A program made the position numbers and the translations under genes. Shown piece by piece: positions 17,131 to 18,815 of a DNA stretch of 64,000 nucleotides (positions within the stretch are counted from its first letter, which is position 1; each line of letters starts with the position of its first letter). The DNA is from Helicobacteraceae bacterium (GTDB lineage: Bacteria > Campylobacterota > Campylobacteria > Campylobacterales > Sulfurimonadaceae), in contig JALVUF010000057.1 in the NCBI GenBank assembly GCA_027023805.1, positions 1-64,000 on the forward strand, read 5' to 3'. Below the pieces are notes generated by a model. The model saw nothing but the letters and a program-made list of their open reading frames with translations. It had not been told where the DNA came from and did no database searches.

Positions 17131-18474
17131 ATGTTTGACACATTAACAAATTCATTTACAACAGCTATAAAAAAACTTCGTTTTTATGATGATGAAAAAT
17201 CTCTTAAAAAAGCGACCAATGAACTTAAAAAAGCCTTACTTAAAGCTGACGTAAATCATAAAGTCGTAAAAAACCTCGTAGCACAAGTTGAGTTAAAAAC
17301 TAAAGAAAAAGGTATCGGGAAAGATCAGTTTTTAGATGCCTTAAAGACAACGCTGTATGATATCTTAGAAGTAGGCGGCAATAAGGGTTTTGTTTTTGCA
17401 CCGAACCCTCCGACGGTTATTTTAATGACAGGATTGCAGGGTTCGGGAAAAACAACTACTACCGGAAAGTTGGCACTTTATCTAAAGAATAAAAAGAAGA
17501 AAGTTTTGGTCGTAGCTGCGGATTTACAGCGTTTAGCGGCAGTTGAACAGCTTCGACAGATCACTTCTAAAATCGATATTGAGTTATTTGAAGATGAATC
17601 TCATAAAAATCCGGTCGAGGTTGTTAAAGATGCTTTAAAGTATGCCAATAGTGCACTTTATGATGTTATCTTAATAGATACAGCAGGTCGTTTAGCGATA
17701 GATGATGAGTTGATGGATGAGCTAGAACAAGTGAAAAAAGTTGCAAATCCTGATGAAATTTTTTATGTAGCAGACTCATTAACCGGTCAAGATGCGGTTA
17801 AAACAGCCATTAGCTTTAATGATAAAATAGGTATTGACGGTGTTATCTTAAGCAAATTTGACGGAGATGGGAAGGGTGGAGTGGCATTAGGATTGTCTTC
17901 TTTGGTGCAAGTACCGCTTCGTTTTATCGGTAACGGTGAAAAGATGGAAGATTTAGAGATCTTTTTACCTGAGCGTATTGTTAATCGTTTAATAGGCTTA
18001 GGCGATATAGAAGGCTTGGCTGAGAAAACATCTGGTGTAATTGATGAAAAAAAGGCAAAGCGAGTTGCCAAAAAAATTCAAAAAGGTAGTTTTAACTTTA
18101 ATGATTTTTTAGAGCAGATGGAAAGTATGAAAAAGATGGGGAGCATGAAATCGATCATGGGCATGATTCCGGGTATGGGAAATATGTCTAAAGCTCTTAA
18201 AGATTTTGATCTTGAGAATTCACAAGAATTAAAACATATGAAAGCCATGGTGTCATCAATGACGCCAAAAGAGCGTGAAAATCCAAATCTTTTAAACAAT
18301 ATGAGAAAATTAAGAATAGCATCAGGCTGCGGTCTTTCACAAGCAGAGGTTAATAAAATTATCAAACAGTTTAAAAATGCCGGTAAAATGGCAAAGAAAT
18401 TTTCAGGCAAAAAAGGGATGCAAAATCTTCAAAATTTGCTGTCTCAATCCAATCTTGGAAATATACCAAGATAA
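17131..18474 (+). CDS. ffh: Signal recognition particle GTPase Ffh
   Basis: Targets nascent membrane proteins with 4.5S RNA. The N domain is followed by the G domain: P-loop [10 protein letters not shown] near 107, DTAGR near 188, and [10 protein letters not shown] near 246. The methionine-rich M domain fills the last 140 residues ([21 protein letters not shown]) and contains the RNA-binding SGCGLS. Length 447 aa is normal. The 4.5S RNA gene was not found in this window. Confidence 0.97.
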
Positions 18475-18485
18475 AGAGTTCTCTT

Positions 18486-18535
18486 CATAAATGTAGATTT
18501 CTGTATTTATTGAAATATAGAGATTTGCATTTATG
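18486..18535 (+). repeat. Long RNA hairpin between ffh and rpsP
   Basis: Arms 18486-18508 and 18513-18535, 23 bases each, pair at every position around an ATTG loop. Nineteen pairs are Watson-Crick and four are G-U (18494-18527, 18496-18525, 18499-18522, 18503-18518). All four become A-C mismatches in the minus-strand RNA, so the structure makes sense only in the + transcript. No T-run follows, so it is not a classic terminator. An RNase III site or leader structure is more likely. Confidence 0.75.
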
Positions 18536-18549
18536 CAGTTATCAAATTT

Positions 18550-18566
18550 TGCAGAAAAATTCTGCA
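18550..18566 (+). repeat. Short hairpin in the rpsP leader
   Basis: TGCAGAA-AAA-TTCTGCA, 7 bp with a 3-nt loop, placed 6 nt before the AAGGAAG Shine-Dalgarno of rpsP and 14 nt after the longer hairpin. It could influence ribosome access; no matching known leader motif is recognised. Confidence 0.5.
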
Positions 18567-18584
18567 TATATAAAGGAAGTGTTC

Positions 18585-18815
18585 ATGGCAACAGTAGTTC
18601 GTTTAACCCGTATGGGTCGTAAGAAAAAACCATTTTATCGTATAGCGGTAACTGATTCACGTAAGCGTAGAGACGGTGGTTGGATAGAGTTGATTGGTTA
18701 TTATAATCCAGTGGGTGAGCAAAAAGTTGTACAGTTTGATGAAGAGCGTCTTAATTACTGGCTTAGTGTTGGTGCGAAGATGAGCGACAGAGTAAAAAAA
18801 ATCACCGGTAAATAA
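18585..18815 (+). CDS. rpsP: 30S ribosomal protein S16
   Basis: 76-aa ribosomal protein starting [20 protein letters not shown], the family signature. The frame is open further upstream to 18510, but that extension would start inside the hairpin leader; the ATG at 18585 has AAGGAAG at good spacing. First gene of rpsP-khpA-rimM-trmD-rplS, the common bacterial 21K operon order. Confidence 0.97.

What the first reader, a model, noticed from the sequence alone, without database searches (positions are those of the whole stretch)
18486..18535. 23-bp hairpin with four G-U pairs between ffh and rpsP
Every one of 23 positions pairs, and all four non-Watson-Crick pairs are G-U in the + RNA but would be A-C in the other strand. 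The asymmetry points to selection on RNA structure. It is long enough (two helical turns) to be an RNase III substrate and could split ffh from the ribosomal operon or regulate S16.
Basis: partly seen in the sequence, partly recalled or inferred. Interest (0 to 1): 0.6.

Follow-up and report, generated by a model that had tools for sequence, protein, structure and literature searches.

The report
Conserved RNA hairpin leader before rpsP
The RNA between two essential genes (ffh and the ribosomal-protein gene rpsP) folds into a long hairpin that many related sulfur-oxidising bacteria preserve by matched mutations, so it is a real RNA element, probably a cutting site that releases the rpsP message; the cutting itself has not been shown.

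Summary
In detail: 18486-18535 is a 23-bp hairpin with a 4-nt loop and four G-U pairs. It is the longest hairpin in the window, while 60 random 64-kb sequences gave at most 17 bp. The window comes from a Sulfurimonadaceae-like campylobacterote. Homologous hairpins lie between ffh and rpsP in its family. On 35 relatives, 95% of pair cells form in P1 and P2 together, and 19 of 26 pairs show changes on both sides (0 of 500 shuffles reach this). Helix mismatches in 49 relatives are 109 G-T against 24 A-C, so selection acts on the + strand RNA.

The hairpin (P1) is part of a larger rpsP leader. The base of its 3' arm can pair instead with downstream sequence (P1'), and a second hairpin (P2) precedes the Shine-Dalgarno sequence. 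A covariance model finds the leader once in nearly every genome that has it. It matches no Rfam family. A different, possibly pseudoknotted leader with its own promoter repeatedly replaces it at the same site.

Best explanation: an RNase III processing site that separates rpsP mRNA from ffh, after which the freed arm refolds as a 5'-terminal hairpin. The structure is shown; the cleavage is inferred. S16 autoregulation is the main rival.

The parts
18486..18508 (+). P1 5' arm, 23 nt, beginning 11 nt after the ffh stop codon
   Evidence: covariation in relatives
18509..18512 (+). P1 apical tetraloop AUUG
18513..18535 (+). P1 3' arm; its lower part (UUUGCAUU) is shared with the alternative helix P1'
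18522..18543 (+). P1', an alternative hairpin that excludes the base of P1: 18522-18529 with 18534-18538 and 18541-18543. It is reduced here; relatives have TTTGCATT/AATGCAAA
   Evidence: fold of the 3' product; covariation in relatives
18550..18566 (+). P2 counterpart: 7-bp hairpin TGCAGAA-AAA-TTCTGCA just before the Shine-Dalgarno sequence. The sequence conserved in most relatives is absent here
18573..18577 (+). Shine-Dalgarno AAGGA of rpsP
   Evidence: sequence
18585..18815 (+). rpsP (ribosomal protein S16), the gene the leader precedes
17131..18474 (+). ffh (signal recognition particle protein), upstream gene in the same direction

Best explanation
The hairpin is the core of a conserved cis-acting RNA leader of rpsP. 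Shown: P1 and P2 are maintained by compensatory changes in the + strand RNA; P1 keeps a nearly fixed distance to rpsP but not to ffh; the lower 3' arm of P1 can also form a conserved alternative hairpin, P1'; the intergenic region has no evident promoter in lineages with this leader. Inferred: ffh and rpsP are co-transcribed, RNase III cuts the P1 duplex (mostly 18-27 bp), and the freed 3' arm refolds as P1' at the new 5' end of the rpsP-rimM-trmD-rplS mRNA. This separates the message needed in large amounts (ribosomal protein) from ffh mRNA, and P1' protects its 5' end from decay.
For: P1 and P2 on 35 relatives: 95.3% of cells paired, 19 of 26 pairs with changes on both sides, 0/500 shuffles, and no slid version comes near. 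P1': 95.7% of cells paired, three pairs with double changes. G-T 109 against A-C 24 in 49 relatives, + strand fold more stable in 46 of 49. Near-perfect helices, mostly 18-27 bp, with little sequence identity, a pattern expected of a length- and pairing-specific enzyme. P1 to rpsP ATG is 61.5 +/- 4.9 nt while ffh stop to P1 is 17.7 +/- 12.3 nt. rnc present and RNase E/G not above cut-off. TATAAT occurs in the intergenic region of 3/49 relatives with this leader (8.5 expected) but 38/50 with the alternative leader (19 expected). When P1 is cut in silico 8 nt into its 3' arm, P1' lies within a few nt of the new 5' end in most relatives folded. C. jejuni RNase III cuts a standard hairpin substrate (PMC3839596). 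In B. subtilis the same ffh-rpsP intergenic region is cut, by RNase Y (PMC10100781).
Against: No transcript-end data exist for this organism. Some relatives have only about 16 uninterrupted pairs with mismatches below, near the lower limit for RNase III, and L058 has about 13 pairs. The invariant unpaired bases around P2 in most relatives are not explained by processing. P1' covariation is modest (four double-change cells) and P1' is weak in the window itself. The 8-nt cut position was assumed.
Confidence: 0.5

Rival explanations
1. An autoregulatory S16 leader: excess S16 binds the P2 and Shine-Dalgarno region (or a P1/P1' switch) and blocks rpsP translation. It could coexist with processing.
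For: The leader sits before rpsP in the hits checked. P2 covaries, and the unpaired flanks TTTAACATATACAG and GCAGAGAAGGA are nearly invariant. P1 and P1' exclude each other, as in a switch. An S16 leader is proposed in Flavobacteria (PMC7247131). Two different leaders replace each other at this site.
Against: No significant similarity of the leader to 16S rRNA. The conserved P2 sequence is missing in the window lineage, which keeps P1. P1' does not cover the Shine-Dalgarno sequence. No Rfam match.
Confidence: 0.3
2. A 3'-end barrier: P1 stops exonucleases and stabilises ffh mRNA, as stem-loops do in selective RNA processing and stabilisation.
For: P1 starts 8-57 nt after the ffh stop. Stem-loops at processed 3' ends protect upstream messages in C. 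cellulolyticum (PMC4423207).
Against: P1 is held at a nearly fixed distance from rpsP, not from ffh. It shares sequence with P1', and the conserved remainder of the leader lies on the rpsP side.
Confidence: 0.1
3. A transcription terminator or attenuator between ffh and rpsP.
For: Position between genes; strong hairpin.
Against: No U-tract follows P1 or P1' in the window or core relatives. The terminator scan finds nothing here. The stem is A+T-rich and unusually long.
Confidence: 0.06
4. A DNA-level palindrome or mobile repeat with no RNA role.
For: It is a near-perfect inverted repeat.
Against: One copy in the genome, one leader per genome apart from weak opposite-strand echoes in three, conserved position, and G-T over A-C mismatches by 109 to 24.
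Confidence: 0.02

Closest known systems
ffh-rpsP intergenic RNase Y cleavage site of Bacillus subtilis (PMC10100781)
   Same: Same gene junction; an endonuclease cut separates ffh from the rpsP-rimM-trmD-rplS message.
   Different: RNase Y there, with a transcription start site 18 nt downstream; no long conserved duplex is described in the passages read.
RNase III intercistronic site of rpsO-pnp in E. coli (PMC8708148)
   Same: Hairpin between a ribosomal-protein gene and another gene in a polycistronic mRNA.
   Different: There the ribosomal-protein gene is upstream, and cleavage destabilises the downstream pnp mRNA.
Candidate S16 leader of Flavobacteria (PMC7247131)
   Same: Structured RNA directly upstream of rpsP.
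   Different: Different phylum; no Rfam family matched here. Its structure was not compared base by base.
Selective RNA processing and stabilisation in Clostridium cellulolyticum (PMC4423207)
   Same: Intergenic processing sites with stem-loops set the ratio of neighbouring messages.
   Different: There the stem-loops protect 3' ends of upstream messages; here the alternative hairpin would sit at the 5' end of the downstream message.

Membership tests
RNase III intercistronic processing site | Near-perfect RNA helix of about two turns (20 bp or more) | tested here: met
   23 bp in the window; about 18-27 bp in most relatives, though some have about 16 uninterrupted pairs
RNase III intercistronic processing site | Helix maintained by compensatory change in the transcribed strand | tested here: met
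RNase III intercistronic processing site | RNase III gene in the genome | tested here: met
   TIGR02191 above cut-off in 7 of 7 genomes, including the window's
RNase III intercistronic processing site | rnc-dependent cleavage with staggered ends in the duplex | not testable with these tools
   needs RNA ends in wild type and rnc mutant
Ribosomal-protein (S16) autoregulatory leader | Structured, covarying RNA directly upstream of rpsP only | tested here: met
   covariance model hits one place in every positive genome; those with loci checked lie before rpsP
Ribosomal-protein (S16) autoregulatory leader | Match to a described leader family in Rfam | tested here: not met
   no Rfam hit in the window or 20 loci
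Ribosomal-protein (S16) autoregulatory leader | Resemblance to the S16 site of 16S rRNA (common but not obligatory) | tested here: inconclusive
   no consistent significant local sequence alignment to 16S rRNA of three relatives; structural mimicry not tested
Ribosomal-protein (S16) autoregulatory leader | S16 binds the leader and represses | not testable with these tools
   needs a binding assay and reporter fusion
Intrinsic terminator | Hairpin followed directly by a U-run | tested here: not met
   sequence after 18535 is CAGUUAUC; scan negative
Dispersed palindromic repeat | Several copies per genome | tested here: not met
   single copy

The most novel reading that the evidence does not exclude
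A cleavage-triggered RNA switch: RNase III cutting of P1 frees a pre-programmed sequence that refolds into a 5' cap hairpin (P1'), so one conserved RNA segment encodes first the cutting site and then the stabiliser. Campylobacterota swap this leader at one site with a promoter-driven, possibly pseudoknotted leader.
Probability: 0.3. Interest if true: 0.68.

Novelty: new variant of a known kind. Interest (0 to 1): 0.5.

Why it matters
It adds an undescribed structured RNA leader for rpsP, a gene with few known leaders. It gives a directly testable case of three-strand conservation (P1 against P1') that could link RNase III processing to 5' protection of a ribosomal-protein message in bacteria where no RNase E/G was found. 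Repeated replacement by an unrelated leader at the same junction suggests strong, convergent pressure to set rpsP expression apart from ffh.

Tried and rejected
A second copy in the genome was not found. No Rfam families matched the window or 20 related loci, nor five loci at a relaxed threshold apart from one weak microRNA hit. An intrinsic terminator was rejected because there is no U-run. 16S rRNA mimicry by local alignment was not significant; one marginal hit in a single genome did not recur. I first suspected the alternative leader class was 6S RNA. The Rfam 6S model finds nothing in 8 genomes, and 6S lies upstream of purD in C. jejuni and H. pylori (PMC3847290), so I dropped that reading. 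A strict DNA pattern for the alternative class was too narrow, so I used a covariance model instead. Paper searches found nothing on this leader.

Full report
Observation. Positions 18486-18508 pair with 18513-18535 around the loop AUUG; 19 pairs are Watson-Crick and four are G-U. The fold is far more stable than shuffled sequence (z -6.7). No other hairpin in the window exceeds 14 bp, and 60 random 64-kb sequences with the same dinucleotide make-up reached at most 17 bp. Rfam has no match, and the genome has no second copy.

Context. The gene order is ffh, rpsP, KH-domain gene, rimM, trmD, rplS, all on the + strand (names from the translated sequences). The best public match is a 99% identical ffh on a contig titled Helicobacteraceae bacterium; most other matches are Sulfurimonas and relatives, so the window is a Sulfurimonadaceae-like member of the Campylobacterota.

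Relatives. I extracted the ffh-rpsP intergenic regions of related loci. They fall into two classes. Class A, 49 distinct sequences including the window's, almost all carry a hairpin of about 18-27 bp; the primary sequence varies widely, from A+T-rich stems to G+C-rich ones such as that of L084 (AAGGAGTGTTGCGGATTGGGTCT TGAG AGACTTAGTCCGCAGCACTCCTT). A tally that treats both mismatch types alike finds 109 G-T and 24 A-C oppositions, and the + strand is the more stable fold in 46 of 49. In three of these loci (L004, L021, L079; L004) the automatic choice picked an additional upstream hairpin. Related sequences are not independent, so the binomial p value (about 4e-14) is only indicative.

Anatomy. 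On the alignment of 35 sequences (A1), P1 and P2 together have 95.3% of cells paired; 19 of 26 pairs have changes on both sides (shuffled mean 10.1, 0/500), and sliding the partner by 1-3 columns drops pairing below 47%. The lower part of the 3' arm, TTTGCATT, is also complementary to AATGCAAA just downstream. This alternative helix P1' is 95.7% paired, with three pairs showing double changes. P1 is least well kept at pairs 24-64 and 25-63, near its base, where P1 and P1' compete. In L095, A64 has become C, and both its P1 partner and its P1' partner have become G. The wobble at window 18494.18527 is U.G in 27 of 35 and C-G in 8, whereas the same G pairs with C or U in P1'. P2 is a 6-7-bp hairpin, followed in most relatives by GCAGAGAAGGA with the Shine-Dalgarno sequence. 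The window keeps P1 at full strength, has a shortened P1' and a 7-bp hairpin of different sequence at the place of P2.

Whose leader is it. P1 ends 61.5 +/- 4.9 nt before the rpsP start but starts 17.7 +/- 12.3 nt after the ffh stop (34 relatives), so it belongs to rpsP. A covariance model of the leader (R1) hits 48 of 151 genomes of the family, in 10 of 18 genera; three of these have an extra weak hit on the opposite strand of the same place, and the rest have one hit. Among 200 genomes of the order it hits only this family. Other families often have short intergenic regions, some with unrelated hairpins.

The second class. Class B relatives, including the other sampled members of the window's genus except its near-twin G005, have a TATAAT-like promoter and a different RNA: a covarying helix (22 cells with double changes) around a loop whose CCUCU is complementary to an invariant AGAGG downstream (a possible pseudoknot, untested by covariation because it never varies). 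Its model R2 hits 16 of 200 genomes in three families. On the ffh tree the two classes interchange at least five times by well-supported branches, and the window (class A) groups with class B members of its genus on both ffh and trmD trees. Class A in that tree is a label for 'not class B' and includes a few distant sequences with unrelated hairpins.

Mechanism. Class A regions lack TATAAT (3 of 49, 8.5 expected), whereas class B regions have it (38 of 50, 19 expected). This suggests rpsP is co-transcribed with ffh in class A and separately transcribed in class B. The long, sequence-tolerant duplex, the rnc gene and the absence of an RNase E/G above cut-off fit RNase III processing. If P1 is cut about 8 nt into its 3' arm, P1' becomes a 5'-terminal hairpin in most relatives folded. 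Co-transcription, cleavage and protection are inferred, not shown.

Rivals. The near-invariant unpaired bases around P2 suggest a bound partner, for which S16 is the natural candidate; a candidate S16 leader exists in Flavobacteria (PMC7247131). Local alignment to 16S rRNA gave no support. Processing and autoregulation may both operate. A terminator, a mobile palindrome and a purely 3'-protective role for ffh fit less well.

Verdict. The hairpin is real, conserved RNA structure. It appears to be an undescribed leader of rpsP: a new variant of known kinds of intercistronic processing site or ribosomal-protein leader.

Noticed in passing
L017:4887-4988, L098:1785-1870 (- strand), L016:4888-5001 and others (alignment A2): Class B rpsP leader: a conserved RNA with its own promoter and a possible pseudoknot (loop CCUCU with downstream AGAGG), in three families of the order and with no Rfam match. 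It may be a new S16 leader.
   Followed up: partly
G000 against G001-G004, G006, G007; ffh-rpsP junction: The window and its near-twin carry the class A leader while the sampled sister species in the genus carry class B, although their ffh and trmD genes group together. Leader replacement or recombination at this junction is likely.
   Followed up: partly
L004, L021, L059, L079 (intergenic region directly after ffh): Some relatives have an extra strong hairpin GGCATGTGGAA.../...TTCCACATGCC upstream of P1; many others have a short ACATGT palindrome at the same place.
   Followed up: no
window 18426-18438 and 18543-18555: A 13-nt, 92% complementary pair (end of ffh coding sequence with the P1-P2 spacer) could enclose P1; it may be chance.
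   Followed up: no
L145, L147, L150, L155 (other families of the order): Unrelated hairpins of roughly 16-19 bp also occur between ffh and rpsP in several other families, suggesting recurrent origin of a hairpin at this junction.
   Followed up: partly
G000, G004, G006, G008, G017, G031, G039, G051: The Rfam 6S RNA model finds nothing in these campylobacterote genomes although 6S RNA is known in C. jejuni and H. pylori; the model seems too narrow for this group.
   Followed up: no
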